The notes under the pieces are model-generated. The model made no database searches, was not told the origin of the DNA, and worked only from the letters and a program-made list of their open reading frames with translations. Positions 35,458-60,991 of a DNA stretch of 64,000 bases are shown one piece after another. How positions within the stretch are numbered: the stretch's first letter is position 1; the number at the start of each line of letters is the position of its first letter. The stretch is from Phytoseiulus persimilis. Lineage: Eukaryota > Arthropoda > Arachnida > Mesostigmata > Phytoseiidae. The stretch is from NCBI GenBank assembly GCA_037576195.1, contig CM075101.1, positions 40,238,001-40,302,000 of the forward strand. The letters are read 5' to 3'. A program made the position numbers and the translations under genes.

Positions 35458-35616
35458 CTCTTCAGTAGGGGTCGCAGAACCGGGTATGATACCCGGTTCC
35501 GGACCCGGGTATCGGACCCGGGTACCCGATTACCCGACTTCGGGTACCCGGTTCCAGACGCGGGTACGGACCCGGGTAAATGAGGCGGGTTCTACGATGG
35601 CCGGGACCAATCTGGC

Positions 35617-35830
35617 CATTACTTTCCAACTCTGGAGGGGTGATTCCGAGACCGATCTGAGCATTACTTCCCAACTCTGGAGGGGTGATTCCGAGACCGA
35701 TCTGAGCATTACCTCCCAACTCTGGAGGAGTGATTCCGAGACCAATCTGAGCATTACTTTCCAACTCTGGAGGAGTGATTCCGAGACCAATCTGACAACA
35801 CTTTCTCGAGTCTGGAGAGATGATTCCCTG
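35617..35830 (-). repeat. 45-bp tandem repeat, left arm (4 full units plus remnant)
   Basis: Four full units start at 35617, 35662, 35707 and 35752, followed by a diverged partial unit. The unit reads CATTACTTTCCAACTCTGGA then GGGGTGATTCCGAGACC and so on. It is the reverse complement of the right-arm units. Because 45 is divisible by three, the array stays open as a 15-residue periodic peptide in some frames; this is a by-product, not a gene. Confidence 0.92.
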
Positions 35831-35980
35831 ATACTAGCTAGTTTGTAAGCTGGTAGACGCCTGGAACGGGGAGCTCCTGTCGCTAGTGTAATGCGTTCAT
35901 TCTTCGAGCCAACAGTATGCACCTCGCACGAAGTGTCCTTCGCGGATAACGATCATAGTGGCCACATGTGTAACATGTGG

Positions 35981-36340
35981 CTCAGATTGGCCCCGGAATC
36001 ACCCCTCCAGAGTTGGAAAGTAATGCTCAGATTGGTCTCGGAATCACTCCTCCAGAGTTGGGAAGTAATGCTCAGATTGGTCTCGGAATCACTCCTCCAG
36101 AGTTGGGAAGTAATGCTCAGATTGGTCTCGGAATCACCCCTCTAGAGTTGGAAAGTAATGCTCAGATTGGTCTCGGAATCGCCCCTCCAGAGTTGGAAAG
36201 TAATGGTCAGATTGGTCTCGGAATCACTCCTCTAGAGTTGGAAAGTAATGCTCAGATTGGTCCCGGAATCACCCCTCCAGAGTTGAAAAGTAATGCTCAG
36301 ATTGGTCTCGGAATCACCCCTCCAGAGTTGGAAAGTAATG
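35981..36340 (+). repeat. 45-bp tandem repeat, right arm (8 full units)
   Basis: Eight full units start every 45 bp from 35981, each beginning CTCAGATTGG or GTCAGATTGG; a ninth partial unit at 36341 passes into the G/C-rich outer arm. The right arm has twice as many units as the left, so the arrays changed length after the palindrome formed or while it was maintained. One frame reads a repeated AQIGLGITPPELESN peptide. Confidence 0.95.
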
Positions 36341-36835
36341 GCCAGATTGGTCCCGGCCATCGTAGAACCCGCCTCATTTACCCGGGTCCGTACCCGCGTC
36401 TGGAACCGGGTACCCGAAGTCGGGTAATCGGGTACCCGGGTACCCGGGTCCGATACCCGGGTCCGGAACCGGGTACGGACCCGGTTCCTGATACCCGGGT
36501 ATTTGCGACCCCTACTCTTCAGGAGAACGTGAAATGTACTTTTTCGTTGTCGATCAAAATGACGCTCGATGACCACGAGGCTTGCCCGAGGGAGCTTTCG
36601 AAGACTGCGGTGCAAGAACGAGGTGTCACAAGGCGGACAAGTTTTTGAAGGCACATTCGCCCGACCTTCTGCAGGCCGTGGTGGACACGATGGCGGAATA
36701 AGATAATGAACCTTCGAGCGGAGTCCCTCCAACAGTAACTCTCGTAATACTGTTTAACAATCGACCATCCTAGGAACAATGTTTGAACCTTCGGTAGTCG
36801 CTGAAAGCTCTGAATATTGCGACATTTCCCTCATA

Positions 36836-48319: not shown

Positions 48320-49102
48320 TCACTTTTTCGTGTGTCGGAGGTAGTGCTTCCTGAGATCCAGTTCATAAATGAACCTCAGAGGGCATTTCTCACATGGATG
48401 GGTTGGTGGTCCGTCATGCAGTCTCAAATGACGCGTCAAGTCATTGCTCTGAATGAATGCTTTGTTGCATTTGGTACACACGTAAGGTTTTTCACCGGTA
48501 TGGATTCTTTCGTGCGATTTGAGATTGCTCTTGTCGGCGAATCCGCGCCCGCAGTGCTGGCACGGGAAAGGTTTTTTACCAGCGTGAATACGAGCGTGCA
48601 AAGTCAGGGATGTTTTGGAGGCGTAGGCCTGCTTACATAAACGGCAACGGAAGGGCTTCTCTCCCGTGTGCGTTCTAACGTGCCGAGTTAGGTGAGTTTT
48701 CTGAGAAAACGCCTCGTTGCACTCGGAGCAGACGAAGGGTCTTTCCCCGGTGTGCAGCCTCCGGTGCGTTGATAGATTACCCCGTTGGGTGAATTTAGCT
48801 CCGCAGTCGGAGCAGACGAATGGCCTCTCTCCGGTGTGAGTGCGGCTGTGCCGCAGCAGGCTCTGCTTGTCAGAGAACCTTTTCGAGCAAACGCTGCATT
48901 TCGAAAACCTTCGTCGGCTACCAGTGCCCGATCGTGCCTTCGTAGTTTTTTTCTGTCCAATAACAGGAAGGCGCCCTTTGTGCGATATGGAGGCTTTGTC
49001 AGCGTCGGCGCGATCGTGTGGAGGATTCGTTTCTTCCCGAAAATTCCCGTGCCGACATTTGTTTAAAACGCACTTTCCGCAAGTGACGGACGAAATTTTC
49101 AT
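48320..49102 (-). CDS. C2H2 zinc-finger protein, seven fingers
   Basis: A probable nuclear DNA-binding protein. From the first ATG (49102) the frame gives 260 residues: a cysteine-containing start (CGKCVLNKC), a basic linker, then seven consecutive C2H2 fingers from about residue 69 to 257. They begin [102 protein letters not shown] and [17 protein letters not shown]. Linkers are classical TGERPF/TGEKPF/TGEKPY, except AGKKPF between fingers 4 and 5 and a divergent one before finger 7. The frame extends upstream to a TAA near 49170 with no ATG, so an upstream exon joined near there is possible. No BTB or KRAB domain is seen. The orthologue is not identifiable. Confidence 0.9.
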
Positions 49103-49179
49103 GACAGCGCACCGACGTTCCAGTGTACGCGATTCAGATGTTACAGCTTGATTCAATGGTACTGCCTGGAGCTTTTACG

Positions 49180-50613: not shown

Positions 50614-50828
50614 GTTTACATCAGTGGTTCTCAAAGCGGTCGATATCGACCCCTGGGGGTCGACCCCCAGGAGTTCGATGGCCGATCTTCGGTTTACAGA
50701 GGTGATGCCGGAATGGATTTGACCATACTTCTTGGCATCGACGTAGGTGGACCAAGGGGTCGACGGTCGATCCTCGGGGGACTAGGGGGTCGATGGGTCA
50801 GTGGAGTTCGAGAACCACTGGTTTACAT
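50614..50828. mobile_element. hAT-type MITE, 199 bp, with 8-bp target duplication
   Basis: The element 50622-50820 starts CAGTGGTTCTCAAAGC and ends GTTCGAGAACCACTG, imperfect inverted repeats of the form common in hAT elements. It is flanked by a perfect 8-bp duplication GTTTACAT (50614-50621 and 50821-50828). The interior is rich in GGGGGTCGA words and has no coding capacity. The termini differ from those of the foldback at 35.5 kb, so it belongs to another hAT family. Confidence 0.88.
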
Positions 50829-51629: not shown

Positions 51630-51860
51630 TCCGGACCCCTCCAGACTTGGGAAGTAATGGCCAGGTTGGTCCCGGAGTCACCCCTCCAGACTTGGAAAGT
51701 AATGGTCAGATTCGTTCCGGGATCACCCCTCCAGACTTGAAAAAGTATGGTCAGATTAGTGCCGGAATCACCCCTCCAGACTTAGGAAGTGATGGTTAGA
51801 TTAGTCCGGGAATCACCCCTCCAGACTTAGGAAGTGATGGTCAGATTGGTCTCAGATTGG
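51630..51860 (+). repeat. 45-bp tandem repeat array immediately 5' of the LINE
   Basis: About five units (starts at 51638, 51683, 51728, 51773 and 51818) read CCTCCAGACTTGGAAAGTAA then TGGTCAGATTGGTCCCGG and so on. They are the same 45-bp family and orientation as the right arm of the foldback at 35.5 kb, but more diverged. The last unit ends in GTCAGATTGGTCTCAGATTGG at the presumed LINE start. Confidence 0.9.
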
Positions 51861-51959
51861 AAATGGTGGGAGTCACGTCCTTGAGGATGCTCGAGGGGGC
51901 TTCGGAGAAACTCGCAGCGCTGCCGGGCTTCGACGAAGAGCGAGCTGTGGCATACGTGG

Positions 51960-52867
51960 ACCCGGTGTGTCGAGACCAGATACTCCGCAGGGCAATGGAA
52001 GTAGCATGCTGGGCCACGGGGGCGCTCTCGGAGAAGACTTCGGAGTCCTGCAGGTCTGCTCAAAGGGTGCTGTGACTCTGCCAAGGGAGGGCGGCATAAC
52101 AACCACGATCGAGGTCAAGTCAGGGGAAGGAAAAACCTTCGAGGACACTCTACGGGGAGTGCGGGGGCTGTGGGATTCAGGCAAGCTCGGCGTTAAAGTC
52201 CGAGGGGTCCCGATGAAAGATGGGAGCGGTAATCTCGTTATCAGGCTCGAGGAGCAGCGGCAGGGAGCGGGGAGGGATTTCGCGAGGGTGCTGAAGGAGA
52301 ACGCCAACTCGGAGGCTGAAGTGAGGGAGGGAACGGGACTGAGACCGGTGGCTCTCTGGGGGTACGACCCGCTAGTCGCCGGTCGCGGAAAGAACTCTTC
52401 GGAGTCTACTGCGGATCCCGGAGAGTGCCAAGGTCGCGGTGGATGAGCCCCGTCTGGTGAGGGCTGAAGTATGGAGGGCCCCAGTTACCTTACCTGCGGA
52501 CGCTGCAGAAGCCCTTCTGCAGCATTCCAGCTTGGGAGCCGGTGTTGTCGAACCGAGCGGTGGGTCGAGGTCCAGACCTGCTTCAGGTGTCACGTCCCGG
52601 GGCATACGGCGAGAGAGTGCACGATGAAGGGAGGGGACGGGAAAGTATGCTACAGATGTGGCGCAGCTGAGCACTTGGCGAAGGACTGCACCGCAGGCCC
52701 AACCCAGATGTTACGTTTGTGATACTGAGGGGCACCGAGCGGACAGCAACTCCTGTCCGGAGAGGGGAACAACAATGAAGGAGATCATCGGGGCGATGAA
52801 ACGGGGCAGAAGCAAGAATGTGCCGGCGGCGGACGGATGGACCACTGTGGGGTATAGGAAACAAAAC
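51960..52867 (+). pseudogene. LINE ORF1 (gag-like) with three CCHC zinc knuckles, frameshifted
   Basis: The upstream frame contains GKLGVKVRGVPMKDGSGNLV, the segment typical of R1/TRAS ORF1 proteins ahead of the knuckles. After a frameshift near 52440, the knuckles CFRCHVPGHTARECT and CYRCGAAEHLAKDCT appear. After another near 52710 comes a third, CYVCDTEGHRADSNSCP. The protein would bind nucleic acid in the retrotransposition particle. The frameshifts show it is not functional. Confidence 0.8.
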
Positions 52868-52870
52868 TAA

Positions 52871-53541
52871 ATGGGCGGGATAACCATAATTCAAATAATC
52901 CTTAACCGGAGAAGGGATGCCCACAGCATGCTTGAAAAGGTGGTCCAGGAGATGCGGGTGGATTTGGCGTTGCTCTCGGAAACCAACGAGGCGATTGCCA
53001 AGAGCCATGGAGATTGGATCTGTGACGAAGCATGTGGCACAGCAGGTTGGGTGGCGGATAACAATGGGTCACTGAAACTGAAAGGACGGGCGGGGGCAGT
53101 GGCTTCATCTGGATGGAGATCGATGGCATCGGGGTTTTCTACTCGTGCTATATATCGCCAAGCAGGCCCCTAGATGACTTCAAGAGTTTTCTTGGGCGAC
53201 TCGGGGAGTGTGTCGTTGGCCACAGAGGGAAGAAGATTTTCATCACGGGGGACTTCAACGCAAAGGGGGCTGACTGGGGCAACCGTCACACAGATGTGAG
53301 AGGGAGGTACCTAGAAGACTGGATGGCTGGGAACGACCTTGTCATACTCAATGACGGGAGACGGAACTATACAGGGATGAATCGACTGATTTACTGGTGG
53401 AATGAGGAAGTGGCCGCTCTGCGCCTAAAAAGGACCGCGAGTAGAACGGCGAACTGGCTGGGACGTCGAGACCGGGGAGCGCAGGGGAGGGCTACATATA
53501 CCAAGCAGATGGCCTTGTATGGGAGGGCACGGGGAAACTGA
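52871..53541 (+). pseudogene. LINE ORF2 endonuclease domain, internally deleted
   Basis: The frame begins MGGITIIQIILNRRRDAHSM, then MRVDLALLSETNEA (family usual: a glutamate-containing catalytic motif). After a frame change it shows ITGDFNAKGADWGNRHTD, with the catalytic GDFNAK motif. The expected distal SDH motif is missing: soon after RNYTGMNRLI the text jumps to WWNEEVAALR, which normally lies beyond the endonuclease, so roughly the last quarter of the domain is deleted. Confidence 0.8.
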
Positions 53542-53594
53542 GGGCTGGCATAAGAAGGAGCGAGGCGAGGGCCTGGAGGGAGTTAATCGAGGAG

Positions 53595-55499
53595 GTGGAA
53601 AAAGACGTATGGGGAAATCCGTATAAAATTGTAATGGGAAAATTCGCGAGGAAGGGACCGAAGCTGGCTGATGAAACAATGCAGGAAACAATTCGGGGGC
53701 TTTTCCCGGAGCGCTCTGAGGGGGAGGGGGGCACCGACGGGACCGAGAGAATGGGTATCCAGAATCGGGGACGGATGATTCCAGAGCTAACTTCGGAGGA
53801 GATAATTCGGGCAGCTGACGGACTGGCGACGCGTAAAGCGCCAGGGCCGGACGGAGTTCCCGCTGAGGTGGTGAAGCTCTTGGCCAGTAGATGGCCCAAA
53901 TTGGTGGGGGATTTTTTTAATCAGCAGGTGAGGGAGGGTGGGTTCCCGCTGCCTTGGAAGCGGGCGGGGCTAGTGTTCAAACCGAAGGGAGGGGGAGGAG
54001 GGCAGATGCCGATTTGCCTCCTAAATAGCACAGGGAAGTTGTTTGAAAAGGTCATCGTCGAAAGACTGCACGTGGAGATCGAGCATCTGGGGGCGCTAGC
54101 GGGGAATCAATATGGTTTCAGGAGGGGTCTATCGACGGTCGAGGCAGTCAGATGGGTTATCAGCCGAGCGATGGAGGAGAGGGTGAAGCGCTAAAAGACT
54201 AGGAGTTTCGTCTTGTTGGTGCTGCTCGATGTCAGGGACGCGTACAACTCGCTGAAGTGGGGGAAAATATTGCGGGCCATGAGGGGGGCAGCGGCTTCTC
54301 GGAGTACTTAATCCGGGTCGTTCCGTCGTATCTGAGCGAGAGGGGAATCGTTCTGAAAGGGGGCGATTTCAAAATCACGGTTGGGGTTCCATCTTGGGCC
54401 CAACATTGTGGAGCCTTGCGTATGACGGGGTTCTGAGGGTGGGCATGCCGAGGGGGGGGGCGAGTTTTTAGCTTACGCTGACGATCTCGCACTCCTCGTC
54501 AGGGCCAAAACTAAGGGCGAGGTGGAGAGTATTGAGAGCCGGGCGCTGGGGATAATCCATGAGTGGATGAGGAGCTTCAATCTGGAGCTGGCACCGAACA
54601 AAACGGAATTTCTCTACCTTATAGGGAAGAAGAGGGCGAAGGGGATGAACCTGGATTTGAGAGGGGTGGCGATCACGCTTGTTGATAGGGTGAAATACCT
54701 TGGGGTGATTTTGGCCAAAGGGCTTTCTGGGAGGGGGCACATCGGGTATGTTGCGGAGAGGGCGAGGGAAACATCGAGAAAGCTTGGTAGGTTGATGCCG
54801 AGGATTGGGGGAATAGAGGGAGGGGACAGACGCCTGCTTGCGTCAGTGGCGGAGTCGGCGGCCATGTATGCGGCCCCTGCGTGGGCGCATATGGCACTCG
54901 CGTCAAAGGGTAGGCGGCAAGCCATCCGAGCGGCACAGAGGACGCTTGCGATCAGAGTGAGCCGGGCTTACAGAACGGTCTCCACCGATGCAGCCCTCGT
55001 ACTTGCGAGGATGGTCCCGTGGGATTTACTGGCGCAAGAAAGGGCCGCGTGCTGGAGGAAGGAGGGACTCGGAAGGGAGGAGGGGAGGGAGAAGACCATG
55101 GAGGCATGACAGCGTGAATGGGAGGCGGGTCTAATAGGGGAGTCGAAGGGGAAATGGACGAGGCATCTCATAAGAAACTTGAAAAAGTGGGTGGACTGCG
55201 AGCACGGGGAGCTCAACTACGGGACAAGCCAGATTCTCACGGGGCATGGTCAGTTTCAGACCTTCATGGTCAAAATAGGGAAGTCAGACTCCGATGTGTG
55301 CACCCTGTGCACTGCGGGTGGAACAGACGATTTGGAACACACCGTGCTTCACTGCGAGGCCCTGCGCAACATCAGAGGGGACTGGGCTGTGGGTTTCAGT
55401 GGAGGGGGGATGAGAGAGGTGGTGGAGTACGGGCTCAGGGTTAGGGAAGAATGGGATTATGTTCCGGGGCATTTCGAAAGAATCACGTCAAAACGGTGA
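53595..55499 (+). pseudogene. LINE ORF2 reverse transcriptase and C-terminal zinc-binding region, broken
   Basis: Ordered motifs are visible in shifting frames: RKAPGPDGVPAEVVKLL; PICLLNSTGKLFEKVIVERL; GNQYGFRRGLSTVEAVRWV; LLVLLDVRDAYNSLKW (catalytic Asp motif); GSILGPTLWSLAYDGVL; and FLAYADDLALLV (catalytic YADD) near 54465-54500. The thumb and connection follow from 54522 (VKYLGVILAKG). The C-terminus has LTGHGQFQTF and a CCHC-type finger CTLCTAGGTDDLEHTVLHC. At least three frame changes and several stops separate the motifs. Confidence 0.85.
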
Positions 55500-55985
55500 G
55501 GGAGGAAGGTCGGAGGGCGCGACTCGTCGCAAACTCCGAATTACGTCGGACGGCTGAAGCGGGAGAAAGGGCCCGTCAGCGGGCTCTGGACACTGCCGAG
55601 AGACCGACGGACTCTCATTGACTGGATGCGGGGGGTATTTAGGTTCGAGCAGCAGAATCTCAGCACAACACATACAACGGTACACGTTCGCCTCTGAGCA
55701 CGGCACACACATCGGCACACTTCTCATCATACACAACGGAACACCACCAAGCAAATGGCTCGCGAGGATACGATGTAGGATACGAAGACAAGAATGATGA
55801 CTCCCGTTCCCATTGGCTCGAAGTAATGCTAAACCAATTCCGTCCATGGGAGCGGCCCACCGCCCGGAAGCGGGGGTTGGGGAGACTCCAGGTTTTTAGT
55901 GGGTTTGCGACTCCCACAGTACTGTGCTGGGGCTATGGCACAGTCTGCCTCACGCATTTCTCTTCCTGGACCCCAGAAAAAAAAA

Positions 55986-56184
55986 CTTGGAAAGTGATGG
56001 TCAGATTGGTACCGCGATCTCCCCCCCCCCCTCCAGACATGGAAAAGTGTAGTCAGATCGGTCCCGCAATCACCCCTCCAGGCTTGGAAAAGTTTTGTGA
56101 GGTCGACCCCGGAATCACCGACTTCCGAAACCGAGGCCTGACCCGGGTACCCGGTTCCCGACACCCGGTATTTGCGGCCCGTAG
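55986..56184 (+). repeat. 45-bp repeats and foldback-type terminus 3' of the LINE
   Basis: About three diverged units with TCAGATTGGT/TCAGATCGGT cores are followed by a G/C-rich CCCGGGTACCCGG segment ending GTATTTGCGGCCCGTA. This matches the outer right arm and terminus (GTATTTGCGACCCCTA) of the foldback at 35.5 kb with changes in the end. With the array at 51630-51860 it looks like one foldback-type arm split by the LINE. A run of C lies near 56022-56031. Confidence 0.8.
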
Positions 56185-56567: not shown

Positions 56568-56569
56568 TA

Positions 56570-56768
56570 CAGCCCACAACACGAAATTATCGACAGTCAA
56601 GTTTTCTAGACTATTCCTGATGACAAAGAGAGATGATGTTGATGCTGCCATGGAATACTCCCAGCATCACCACGATTGTGGCGATAGAATATTTCTTCGA
56701 TTCGAGGAAGACGACGCGTAAGATTCCAGAAAATCGATTTCGAGCCGTAACATGAAATTATCGACAGG
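56570..56768. repeat. Left inverted terminal repeat of the Tc1 element (outer and inner sites)
   Basis: The outer transposase-binding-like site is at 56570-56596 and the inner one at 56744-56768, both containing GAAATTATCGACAG. The sequence between them does not match the right end obviously by eye. Confidence 0.85.
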
Positions 56769-56802
56769 CTGATTTATTCCACGATTTCGGAATTCTCGAA
56801 AG

Positions 56803-57798
56803 TTAATACTTCGTCGAACCCCCTTTCGCCTTGATGACCTCAAAAATGCGCCTTGGGAGAGAATCATAGAGTGGTTTTATGTCTCGTTCCCCAATTCTGG
56901 CCCAAGAAGAAAGAATCGCATGTTTCAGTTCTTCTCTTGAGTTGTACTGCTTCCCATTGGGATAGACGAGCCGAGCTAACGTTCCCCAGAGGTTCTCAAT
57001 AATGTTCAGGTCGGGGCTCTTCGGAGGCCAGTCAAGAAAACGTACTCCGCTCTCCCGGAACCAATCTTTGATTATCGCCGCCGTGTGCACGGAGGCGCAA
57101 TCTTGCTGGAAGATGAAATCCGTTCCAACTTTCTCCAAAGCTTGAGGTCGCAGGTGGTTCTCGAGTAGCAGCTTATAGTCCACGGAGCGCATTATTGTCT
57201 CCACGAAGATGATTTGGAACGTCCCGCGGCGACTGACCGCTCCCCAGATCATAACTGAACCGCCCCCGGACTGTCTTTTGGAATAGAATCGAGGCTCTTT
57301 CCGAAGATCGTGATAGTAGTTATGGAATCCATCCGGGCCGTCCAGATTGAACTTTTTCTCATCGCTGAAGACAACTTTATCCCATTCCGAAGTCCAACTC
57401 ATCCATTCCTGGGCGCGATCGAGCCTAGTGTCTCGGTGCTTTTTCGTCAGCGGGGGCTTCCCGCACATTTTCTTGAATTTCAGATGATACGCACTTCTCA
57501 AAACGCGCCAGACGGTCTGTTTATGCACTGGGAGGTTGTTTGAGTCTCTGATTTGAGCGCAAGAGACACTCTTGTTGCTCGCATCCTGAATTATCTTCCG
57601 TTTCTGACGATCTGAGAGCTTTGTGCTTCGTTTCTTGTACGATCTGATGCCATACTCCGCCCCTAATCTCAAATACCGCAGCACTACGTCCGCTGTTCTG
57701 CCGATCTCTCGTCCGATAGCTCTTGCTGCGAGCCCAGAGCCGTGTAATTGATCGATGCGAATCCTTTCTTGAGGAGTCAGAGCCGGTTTTCGTCCCAT
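56803..57798 (-). CDS. Tc1 transposase (DD34E), intact
   Basis: A 331-residue cut-and-paste transposase starting at an ATG (57798). The N-terminus is a paired-like DNA-binding region with two helix-turn-helix units (about residues 7-110; GLAARAIGREIGRTADVVLR in the first). The catalytic DDE domain follows: D146 in VVFSDEKKFNLDGPDG, D233 in FIFQQDCASVHTA and E268 in SPDLNIIENLWG. The 34 residues between the last two define DD34E, the Tc1 family. GGGSVMIWGAVSRRG, the glycine-rich conserved box, lies between. Length is close to the family norm of about 340, with no stop or frameshift. It could be active, although the terminal repeats have diverged from each other. Confidence 0.96.
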   Translation of the reverse strand: MGRKPALTPQERIRIDQLHGSGLAARAIGREIGRTADVVLRYLRLGAEYGIRSYKKRSTKLSDRQKRKIIQDASNKSVSCAQIRDSNNLPVHKQTVWRVLRSAYHLKFKKMCGKPPLTKKHRDTRLDRAQEWMSWTSEWDKVVFSDEKKFNLDGPDGFHNYYHDLRKEPRFYSKRQSGGGSVMIWGAVSRRGTFQIIFVETIMRSVDYKLLLENHLRPQALEKVGTDFIFQQDCASVHTAAIIKDWFRESGVRFLDWPPKSPDLNIIENLWGTLARLVYPNGKQYNSREELKHAILSSWARIGERDIKPLYDSLPRRIFEVIKAKGGSTKY

Positions 57799-57955
57799 AT
57801 TGAGGGAATTAATTCTTTCTCACAAATCTTGACGAGCCGGAGTTCTGAGTCGACAAATCGTACTTGTGTGTCCTTCGTTAGCACTAACTTGACATTCGTC
57901 GGTATCAGCCTCACGAGAAAGTGCTGAAACTCCAACCGAATGCGCGATTTCAACG

Positions 57956-58154
57956 CTGTCGATAATTTCGTGTTACAGCTGGATATCAAAAATGTTCGAT
58001 CCTGAGCCTAAACTTCGTTCTTCTCAGTCGGTTGATCTAATCTCAAAGTCTGTCGCACCTAGTGGAATTCCCATGGCAACACTGACTTCGTTATCCAGCG
58101 GGTGCGGAAATCATCCACATAGAATGCGTGTCGATAAATTCGTGTTGCGGACTG
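57956..58154. repeat. Right inverted terminal repeat of the Tc1 element (inner and outer sites)
   Basis: The inner site is at 57956-57980 and the outer at about 58128-58154, in inverted orientation to the left end. Confidence 0.85.
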
Positions 58155-58156
58155 TA

Positions 58157-58900: not shown

Positions 58901-58959
58901 CCAATTTTGAGGCTCAGTAGCATTCTGGGACAGATTCAGGTCCGGTCACGGAGTCGATC

Positions 58960-59215
58960 TCATCAAACTCTCGGGGGCATACGGAGTTGATTCCGGGCTT
59001 GATCTGACCACACTTTCCTGGGTCTAGGGGGCGATTTCGTAGTGGATGTGGGCATACTTCTCGGGTTACATGGAGGTGATCCCAGGATACATGGAGGTCG
59101 ATTTGCTCATGCTTTTAGGGGTTTATGAAAGTGGTTCGGGGTCGATCTGACCATTCTTTTGCGGTATATGCAGGTGATTCCGGGAACGTTCTGACCATAC
59201 TTTTTGGGTTCGACA
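58960..59215 (-). repeat. Diverged repeats related to the 45-bp family
   Basis: Degenerate units with cores such as TCGATCTGACCA, ATACTTTT and GGAGGTGATTCCGGG recur at roughly 45-60 bp. They read in the orientation of the left arm of the foldback at 35.5 kb. Unit boundaries are blurred, so this is an old array. Confidence 0.6.
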
Positions 59216-59579
59216 GGGTTTTAGTGGGTATTGGCTGCCACCTCGAGAAGCTTGAGTCCGACACTACCACGGGTTTCATTTCCCGGGTCAGCCCTATAGA
59301 AAGCGGCCGAACATCTCATCAATCTCGGACTGACTAGCAGAATCGGATCCCGCGCGAGTTCTGGCAACTGGATGAGCTGGAATGCCGTCAGCAACGCCCT
59401 CGTTAGAGCAACAGTACGTTCATATCTACGGCGAGGCATAGCCAGCTTTGTTATTGTTGGACACCCCCCTATGACCTCCAGGTCATCCCCTCAAGTCAAC
59501 CCGCGAGCCTAAGCAACGAAGACGATTGAGCCGAAACCTCCCCAGGAGACAGCGTCAAAGACTCTTGGTAATCTAGGTG

Positions 59580-60310
59580 GAACGGTATCGGCGAGGGTGA
59601 GCGGGCTTCTGAACGGAATCCCTGATACCGCGCACCTCTGCCAAGGTCGACCGGAAGCACGGCACCCTCTCATACCCTCTAGCCCAGGAGTGGGCAACTT
59701 GGTGCGGCACGCGGACCGCAGTGCAGAGCACCATCGCGGCCGTGCAAACCTACGGGCTGCCACAGGAAACGTATCTCAGCGAGCTCGAAGTATTCCCAAT
59801 CCATGTGACATCTCTCCGAACAGCGACATCCGGAAAAGATGAGGTTTCAAGCTCAGGAATCGTTTCCTTGGGGTGCATCAGAAACCTGAGCTCCAGGAAA
59901 ATCACGATGCCTCGATGTGCCTATCGAAGAGTGAACACTCGACTCACTCGTCCACCAAGTTGAGGAGACTCACTCAGGTTGGGGAAGATCGTAGGAAATG
60001 TTGAATCTTTTTTTCATAGAAGCGATCCGGCGATTTCAAGCGCTTGTTGCACAGGGCCCTGCTCAAACACAGTGGTCCACTCGCAAGGGTTGGGTCGCAA
60101 TATGCCCACCCCTGCTCTAGCCAATATTCTAACCGGCCACGGATCTTCCGGGACGTACTTCCACAGGATCAAGAAAATTCCGAGCTCCACCTGCCTCCTC
60201 GGTGACGCCGGCTTGCCGGATAGCCCTGCACACACCTTCGAGTCTTGCACGGATTTTGCAGACATCAGAGCAGCCTTCCTCCGGAAGAACAACCTCTATC
60301 TCCCGTGCCA
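59580..60310 (+). pseudogene. LINE ORF2 3' relic, split by a MITE
   Basis: If the MITE at 59685-60114 and one copy of its 8-bp duplication are ignored, the two sides join in one frame: AKVDRKHGTLSYPLAN followed by ILTGHGSSGTYFHRI, then SSTCLLGDAGLPDSPAHTF and ESCTDFADIRAAF. LTGHG followed by a cysteine/histidine finger is the C-terminal signature of R1/Jockey-type ORF2 proteins, also seen in the LINE at 51.9-56.0 kb. An in-frame stop lies upstream (near 59610), so the copy was already decayed. Coding-like text back to about 59300 may belong to it. Confidence 0.65.
59677..60122. mobile_element. hAT-type MITE, 430 bp, with 8-bp target duplication
   Basis: The element 59685-60114 begins CAGGAGTGGGCAACTTG and ends with ATATGCCCACCCCTG (reverse complement CAGGGGTGGGCATAT). 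It is flanked by a perfect 8-bp duplication CTCTAGCC (59677-59684 and 60115-60122). CAGGGGTGGGCA termini and 8-bp duplications are hAT hallmarks. There is no transposase. It is inserted in a LINE relic and so is younger than it. Confidence 0.9.
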
Positions 60311-60334
60311 TTCTAACGCCTCCGGGAACCCCAG

Positions 60335-60520
60335 AAGTATGGTCAGATCGACCCCCATGGACCATAAAATGTATGGTCCAAACGACGTCGAAATCACCTC
60401 CATGGACCCCGAGAAGTGCGGTCAGATCGACGTCGGAATCATCCCTATGGACAACAAAAAGTATTGTCAGATTGACGTCGCGATCACCTCCAGGGACCCC
60501 GAAAAGTATGGTCGGTACTT
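60335..60520 (+). repeat. Diverged 45-bp tandem repeat, about four units
   Basis: Units read AGTATGGTCAGATTGACGTC then GCGATCACCTCCAGGGACCCCGAAA (45 bp), repeated with substitutions. The unit length, TCAGAT core and GAATCACC/GATCACC words tie it to the 45-bp family at 35.5 and 51.6 kb. Orientation is opposite to the array at 58.96-59.2 kb, so the two could be arms of an older foldback enclosing the LINE relic. Confidence 0.8.
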
Positions 60521-60991
60521 GTTTCTTGGGCCCCCTCTTCGGAAGCGGCGCGAAAACCAGCCTGAATGGCGAGCTCTCAGCCCCTCAACGGGCGGCGCAG
60601 GCGGAGAGGAGGCGGGCGAAAGGTAGACGAAGCGGTACACAGGATCCATGCTAGGTTGGACCTCCGCCCGTGGCATGTTGCCAGCCGCTCCAGCCCCCGT
60701 GTCTTGACCGACCGTGTTTTTTGCTCCGCTTTCGAGGAGGGGGCCTAAGATACAAGTACCGAACTCGTTACGCACACTCAGAGTTTTAGGCCCCAGCGCC
60801 ATGATATAGCGCGTAGTTTGGGCCCCGAGCGGGAAATTTCGCCGACCCCTGCCGTAAACGAACTACCTCGAAGGTCGCAGCGAGGCGCGAAAGGGGTTGC
60901 TAGTCATGGAATAAATCATGTGAAACAAAAATTCAGCCAGTTTTTTTTTTCATGAGACTGGACGCTTTTTGACGAAAAGTGAGATTGAGAA
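60521..60991. other. G/C-rich repeat-like sequence, origin unclear
   Basis: Words such as GGCCCC recur, and CGCCGACCCCTG at 60839-60850 resembles a hAT right end. No matching left end or flanking duplication was found. A T run lies near 60941-60949. Confidence 0.35.

What the first reader, a model, noticed from the sequence alone, without database searches (positions are those of the whole stretch)
51630..56184. R1-clade LINE embedded in the 45-bp repeat: possible target-site specificity
Seen: 45-bp units in one orientation run up to the LINE start, and the same unit resumes after its 9-A tail, followed by the foldback-type terminus. Known: many R1-clade LINEs are site specific (28S rDNA, telomeric repeats, microsatellites). 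Inference: this LINE may have evolved to target the 45-bp repeat carried by hAT foldback arms, a retrotransposon parasitising a DNA transposon.
Basis: partly seen in the sequence, partly recalled or inferred. Interest (0 to 1): 0.75.

Follow-up and report, generated by a model that had tools for sequence, protein, structure and literature searches.

The report
R1-like LINE inside hAT foldback repeats
An old, broken LINE retrotransposon sits inside a 45-base tandem repeat belonging to a cut-and-paste foldback transposon; one nested copy like this is expected in transposon-rich DNA and does not by itself show that the LINE aims for that repeat.

Summary
Five 45-bp units in one orientation (51635-51853) run up to a degraded LINE of about 4.1 kb that ends in nine A (55977-55985). 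The unit resumes at its position 11-12, same orientation (to 56116), followed by a decayed foldback terminus (to 56183). The unit belongs to hAT-type foldbacks: an intact one lies at 35466-36514 with TIR TAGGGGTCGCA and 8-bp duplication CTCTTCAG. At the LINE locus only the right terminus was found.
The LINE's apurinic-type endonuclease is closest to TRAS1 and R1Bm among solved structures; R1 clade is likely but untested by tree.
Target specificity cannot be decided. No host genome is held, and seven scans of viral and prokaryote collections (four LINE parts, three unit patterns) found nothing. Arrays cover 2.4% of the window outside the LINE and 11% of the transposon-rich 50-61 kb, so one chance hit is unremarkable. 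A second R1-like LINE remnant (59646-60272) lies between divergent 45-bp arrays, but is cut within coding sequence and meets the array at another phase. A possible target duplication of about 26 bp cannot be told from array homology. Most likely: ordinary nested TPRT insertion.

The parts
51635..51853 (+). Left array: five 45-bp units (type U1), last one cut after unit position 39
51854..55985 (+). LINE-1: R1-like non-LTR retrotransposon copy, broken by several frame changes and stops, probably 5'-truncated, ending in nine A
   Evidence: 5' boundary uncertain
52468..52719 (+). ORF1 (gag) stretch with CCHC zinc knuckles (two matched stretches)
   Evidence: Pfam zf-CCHC E 9e-11
53062..53538 (+). 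ORF2 apurinic-type endonuclease part
   Evidence: Pfam Exo_endo_phos_2 E 4e-12; TRAS1 EN 1wdu E 1.6e-4, from the 53113-53541 stretch
53445..54191 (+). ORF2 reverse transcriptase, N-terminal part
   Evidence: Pfam RVT_1 E 0.002, below the curated cut-off; LINE-1 ORF2p chains E 2.2e-6 to 3.3e-6
54426..55106 (+). ORF2 reverse transcriptase with YADD motif and following region
   Evidence: Pfam RVT_1 E 9e-7, 29.2 bits against a cut-off of 29.6; motif
55179..55496 (+). ORF2 C-terminus with a C-x2-C-x9-H-x4-C motif (read by eye)
   Evidence: translation; Pfam zf-RVT E 0.039, below cut-off
55977..55985 (+). A9 tail at the 3' end; last A may belong to the repeat unit
55986..56116 (+). Right array: resumes at unit position 11-12 (one partial unit), then two further degenerate units
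56117..56183 (+). Decayed right foldback terminus; no left partner found
35466..36514 (.). Intact hAT-type foldback: TIR TAGGGGTCGCA, 8-bp TSD CTCTTCAG (35458-35465 and 36515-36522), inverted arms carrying the 45-bp units
58930..59225 (-). Divergent 45-bp units, minus orientation, left arm (limits approximate; model hits at E 1e-4 or better 58989-59203)
59646..60272 (+). LINE-2: second R1-like ORF2 C-terminal fragment (63 aa aligned, 41% identity to LINE-1), split by a hAT MITE
   Evidence: tblastn E 1.8e-12 on the 1223-base empty site; phmmer E 7e-11 among 18 frames; unsplit part alone E 1e-6 in the whole masked window
59685..60114 (.). hAT MITE inside LINE-2, 8-bp TSD CTCTAGCC
60312..60515 (+). 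Divergent 45-bp units (type U2), plus orientation, right arm; begins about unit position 38

Best explanation
An R1-like LINE copied itself by target-primed reverse transcription into the right-arm 45-bp array of an older hAT-type foldback transposon. Shown: the LINE is flanked on both sides by units in one orientation; it has a 3' A tail; the repeat belongs to hAT-type foldback arms. Inferred: the insertion was 5'-truncated and duplicated roughly 19-29 bp of target (units 51815 and 55985); the foldback had lost, or later lost, its left arm; the landing site was a matter of opportunity in a transposon nest, not a dedicated target. The copy is now broken.
For: Same-orientation units on both sides and A9. 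The last left unit and the first right unit share a 19-bp exact match at the same unit position, the longest of 20 units compared (next 14 bp), as a target duplication would give. The surroundings are a nest of transposons: a Tc1-type element at 56568-58156, hAT MITEs at 50622-50820 and 59685-60114, and divergent arrays. Arrays occupy 770 of 6873 non-LINE bases in 50-61 kb and 1411 of 59872 in the whole window (E 0.1 or better, envelopes; 1182 of 64000 at E 1e-3).
Against: By total matches the last left unit (24 of 26) ties with two others (51680, 36181), and over 28 positions unit 51680 is ahead with 25 against 24, so a target duplication is not proved; a target deletion of about 17 bp gives the same phase jump. 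Both LINE remnants recognised in the window lie in or between 45-bp-type arrays, which is more than chance favours if both count as independent.
Confidence: 0.7

Rival explanations
1. The LINE family is specific for the 45-bp unit: its endonuclease nicks the bottom strand near unit position 11-12 and the family lives in foldback arrays, a retrotransposon parasitising a DNA transposon.
For: [quoted passage not shown] The insertion lies in an array class that is 1.7% (U1 only) to 2.4% of the non-LINE window. A second R1-like remnant lies between arrays of the same superfamily.
Against: One insertion only; no recurrence of phase can be tested. The array to the right of LINE-2 starts at about unit position 38, not 11, about 40 bases after the last recognised LINE-2 codon, and LINE-2 is cut within its coding region, so it is not a TPRT junction. 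The resemblance of the LINE 3' tip to a U2 unit does not survive a fair background (227 of 4132 other 30-mers score as well).
Confidence: 0.15
2. The LINE is cargo: a fragment captured inside the foldback (as LINE-2 may be in its loop) and spread with it, not inserted by its own TPRT.
For: LINE-2 lies between inverted arms (- then +), the layout of a foldback loop; foldbacks with captured loops are known (recalled).
Against: At LINE-1 the arrays on both sides have the same orientation, and the LINE ends in an A tail directly against a unit, as TPRT predicts. The loop region of the intact foldback (35780-36010) shows no LINE homology: best phmmer E 1.8 for gag, 0.87 for EN, none at E 1 for RT1, RT2 and C-terminus.
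Confidence: 0.1
3. The array is younger than the LINE or arose around it by tandem expansion (slippage or unequal exchange).
For: Arrays can expand; the right units match the consensus less well than the left (34-36 against 38-42 of 45).
Against: The phase jump falls exactly at the A tail, and the right array leads into a foldback terminus.
Confidence: 0.05

Closest known systems
R1-clade LINEs TRAS1 and R1Bm (telomeric repeat- and 28S rDNA-specific; clade and targets recalled)
   Same: Apurinic-type endonuclease with best matches among solved structures to TRAS1 (1wdu) and, weakly, R1Bm (2ei9); gag CCHC knuckles; C-terminal CCHC-like motif; lies in a tandem repeat
   Different: Target specificity unproved; single broken copy; the repeat is a transposon-borne minisatellite and not rDNA or telomere
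Tx1-clade LINEs, some of which target a DNA transposon (Xenopus Tx1, recalled; 'transposons' are listed as LINE targets in PMC4640811 and PMC5035012, passages seen)
   Same: LINE inside a DNA transposon
   Different: There recurrence is established (recalled); here one case; clade probably different
Tetris foldback of Drosophila virilis (PMC4079207, outline and abstract seen)
   Same: Foldback whose arms carry internal tandem repeats that can form longer arrays
   Different: Repeat of about 220 bp against 45 bp; no sequence relation tested

Membership tests
R1-clade non-LTR retrotransposon | Apurinic-type endonuclease N-terminal to RT in ORF2 | tested here: met
   Exo_endo_phos_2 E 4e-12 upstream of RVT_1 stretches
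R1-clade non-LTR retrotransposon | Endonuclease nearest to R1-clade endonucleases | tested here: met
   phmmer against PDB: TRAS1 E 1.6e-4 first, R1Bm E 0.54 second (the latter weak); no L1 endonuclease among the 8 hits at E 1 or better
R1-clade non-LTR retrotransposon | RT groups with the R1 clade in a tree | not testable with these tools
   No reference set of LINE RTs is held; the five PDB hits of RT part 1 are four LINE-1 ORF2p sequences and one named only RNA-directed DNA polymerase
R1-clade non-LTR retrotransposon | C-terminal CCHC motif in ORF2 | tested here: inconclusive
   Motif visible in the translation, but Pfam zf-RVT E 0.039 is below its cut-off
Target-specific LINE | Independent copies inserted at the same position of the same target | not testable with these tools
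   No host genome; no copies in viral contigs or genome contigs
Target-specific LINE | Defined target-site duplication | tested here: inconclusive
   19-bp exact shared stretch, longest of 20 units, but 24 of 26 ties with two other units and one other unit is ahead over 28 positions
hAT-type foldback (element at 35466-36514) | Short TIRs and 8-bp target duplication | tested here: met
   TAGGGGTCGC / GCGACCCCTA and CTCTTCAG on both sides
hAT-type foldback (element around LINE-1) | Both termini and 8-bp target duplication | tested here: not met
   Right terminus only; no left TIR above shuffles in 49.5-51.7 kb

The most novel reading that the evidence does not exclude
A lineage of R1-like LINEs is specialised on the 45-bp minisatellite of hAT foldback and MITE families, cutting each unit near position 11-12; both LINE remnants in this window would be relics of that association, and the DNA transposon would act as a mobile safe haven for the LINE.
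Probability: 0.14. Interest if true: 0.65.

Novelty: new member of a known kind. Interest (0 to 1): 0.27.

Why it matters
If the LINE really targets the unit, it would be a case of a LINE whose safe haven is itself mobile and dispersed, and a direct way to study how R1-type endonucleases change targets. As it stands it is a well-defined nested insertion that suggests relative ages (foldback before LINE) and shows that the 45-bp unit is shared by several hAT-like elements.

Tried and rejected
Other copies of the LINE: RT part 1, RT part 2 and the endonuclease in viral contigs and RT part 2 in genome contigs: none. The 45-bp unit as a DNA pattern in viral contigs (two patterns) and genome contigs (one): none. 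The Tc1 transposase and RT part 2 in plasmids, and the transposase in viral contigs: none. These collections are of viruses, plasmids and prokaryotes, so the misses say little.

LINE 3' tip resembling a unit: against one U2 consensus it looked striking (P 0.005 over 2000 shuffles; 0 of 794 LINE and 17 of 4858 window 55-mers as good). Three unit types had been tried (U1 P 0.91, U3 P 0.20), and against all array DNA of the window 227 of 4132 other 30-mers and 111 of 2000 shuffles did as well. Rejected as evidence.

Unit-like sequence beyond 51854: P 0.11, and 74 of 395 LINE 50-mers as good. Rejected.

Recurrence of phase between LINE-1 and LINE-2: not found; the array right of LINE-2 starts at about unit position 38 (60312) and LINE-2 is cut within coding sequence.

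First target-duplication count (match table) was off by one base; corrected. The exact-match list is unaffected.

Full report
Observation. Units begin at 51635, 51680, 51725, 51770 and 51815, all on the + strand. The last one breaks off after unit position 39 (51853). After the LINE and nine A (55977-55985) the unit resumes at position 11-12, again on the + strand, and goes on to 56116. An nhmmer model of the unit scores these stretches from E 7.5e-27 to 5.5e-8. The right side then runs into a decayed terminus (56117-56183) that aligns with that of an intact foldback elsewhere in the window (0 of 1000 shuffles and 0 of 3540 other window 67-mers as good).

What the repeat is. At 35466-36514 lies a complete foldback: TAGGGGTCGC and GCGACCCCTA at its ends, CTCTTCAG duplicated on both sides, and inverted arms holding five units on the left and eight on the right. 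An 8-bp duplication with such ends fits the hAT superfamily (recalled; I found no transposase in it). At the LINE locus only the right terminus is present; a left terminus did not beat shuffles in 49.5-51.7 kb (39 of 100 as good with the intact element's TIR, 75 of 100 with the locus's own right end). More diverged relatives of the unit lie at about 58930-59225 (-) and 60312-60515 (+) and form inverted arms (0 of 200 shuffles as good). A weak match (E 0.097) lies inside a hAT MITE at 50622-50820 with duplication GTTTACAT. So the 45-bp unit is a shared ingredient of several hAT-like elements here; for the MITE that is only suggestive.

What the LINE is. Stop-free stretches give gag zinc knuckles (E 9e-11), an apurinic-type endonuclease (E 4e-12) and two reverse transcriptase stretches (E 0.002 and 9e-7, both below the curated cut-off). 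They lie in different frames with stops between, so the copy is broken at several places. Among solved structures the endonuclease is nearest to TRAS1 (E 1.6e-4) and then, weakly, R1Bm (E 0.54), both R1-clade (recalled); of the other six of eight hits three are R1 fusion constructs and three are chains named CDL. Clade membership by RT tree could not be tested: the five PDB hits of the RT stretch are L1 ORF2p or an unnamed RNA-directed DNA polymerase. I call it R1-like.

Is it targeted? Four protein scans with LINE parts (in viral contigs; 24 in prokaryote genomes) and three DNA pattern scans with the unit found nothing. What remains is internal. Array DNA makes up 1411 of 59872 bases outside the LINE (2.4%; U1 type alone 998, 1.7%) and 770 of 6873 (11%) in the transposon nest at 50-61 kb. 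For a LINE landing in that nest, hitting an array is a one-in-nine event, noticed after the fact.

Second LINE. With LINE-1 masked, the only match to LINE-1 proteins better than E 0.5 in the window is a C-terminal fragment at 60120-60272 (E 1e-6), and no DNA match at E 0.1 or better and no further RT Y/F-x-DD motif of the pattern used was found. Closing the hAT MITE that splits the fragment (empty site, duplication CTCTAGCC) extends the match to 63 aa, 41% identity, E 1.8e-12 in that 1223-base stretch (phmmer E 7e-11). It lies between the inverted divergent arms, about 420 bases from the left one and about 40 from the right one. This is the most interesting thing in favour of an association: both recognised LINE remnants lie in or between arrays. 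Against it, the fragment stops within coding sequence and the array there begins at about unit position 38, so it is no insertion junction, and the layout suggests capture as a foldback loop. LINE remnants unlike LINE-1 would have been seen only by Pfam in the ORFs that I scanned: 25 of the 36 stop-to-stop ORFs of 150 aa or more, one of them in part. Shorter or unrelated remnants may have been missed.

Junctions. The last left unit and first right unit share 19 exact bases at the same position, the longest of 20 units (next 14). Over 26 positions the last left unit has 24 matches, equal to two other units; over 28 positions another unit (51680) leads with 25. A target duplication of about 19-29 bp is the natural reading, but in a tandem array a deletion of about 17 bp would look alike. 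A resemblance of the LINE's 3' tip to a U2 unit seemed promising and failed on a wider background (227 of 4132).

Literature. [quoted passage not shown] PMC5035012 (passages) lists the same kinds of targets. So a LINE specific for a DNA transposon would not be a new kind. PMC4079207 (outline and abstract) describes a foldback with tandem repeats in its arms. Seven completed searches (listings) showed no paper whose title or abstract start speaks of an R1-clade LINE in a 45-bp foldback repeat; that library is partial. The 2003 paper on R1-clade targets is not held.

Verdict. Observation confirmed; a nested, old, probably 5'-truncated R1-like LINE in a hAT-type foldback arm. Specificity is possible (about 0.15) and cheap to test with the genome.

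Noticed in passing
56568-58156: Tc1-type DNA transposon with an uninterrupted 331-aa transposase ORF (56803-57798, - strand; DDE_3 E 1.6e-18) and paired inverted repeats at both ends (outer 56568-56595/58129-58156, inner 56736-56767/57956-57987; 88-89% complementary), an IR/DR-like layout.
   Followed up: partly
50622-50820: hAT MITE (CAGTGGTTCTCAA ... GAGAACCACTG) with perfect 8-bp duplication GTTTACAT, carrying one weak relative of the 45-bp unit (E 0.097).
   Followed up: partly
59685-60114: hAT MITE (CAGGAGTGGGCAA ... TGCCCACCCCTG) with duplication CTCTAGCC, inserted into a second R1-like LINE fragment.
   Followed up: yes
60512-60762: Element with 48-bp inverted ends (85% complementary) starting TCGGTACTTG, adjoining the U2 array; no target duplication seen by eye.
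   Followed up: no
48320-49174: C2H2 zinc-finger protein ORF (284 aa, seven zf-C2H2 stretches) on the - strand.
   Followed up: no
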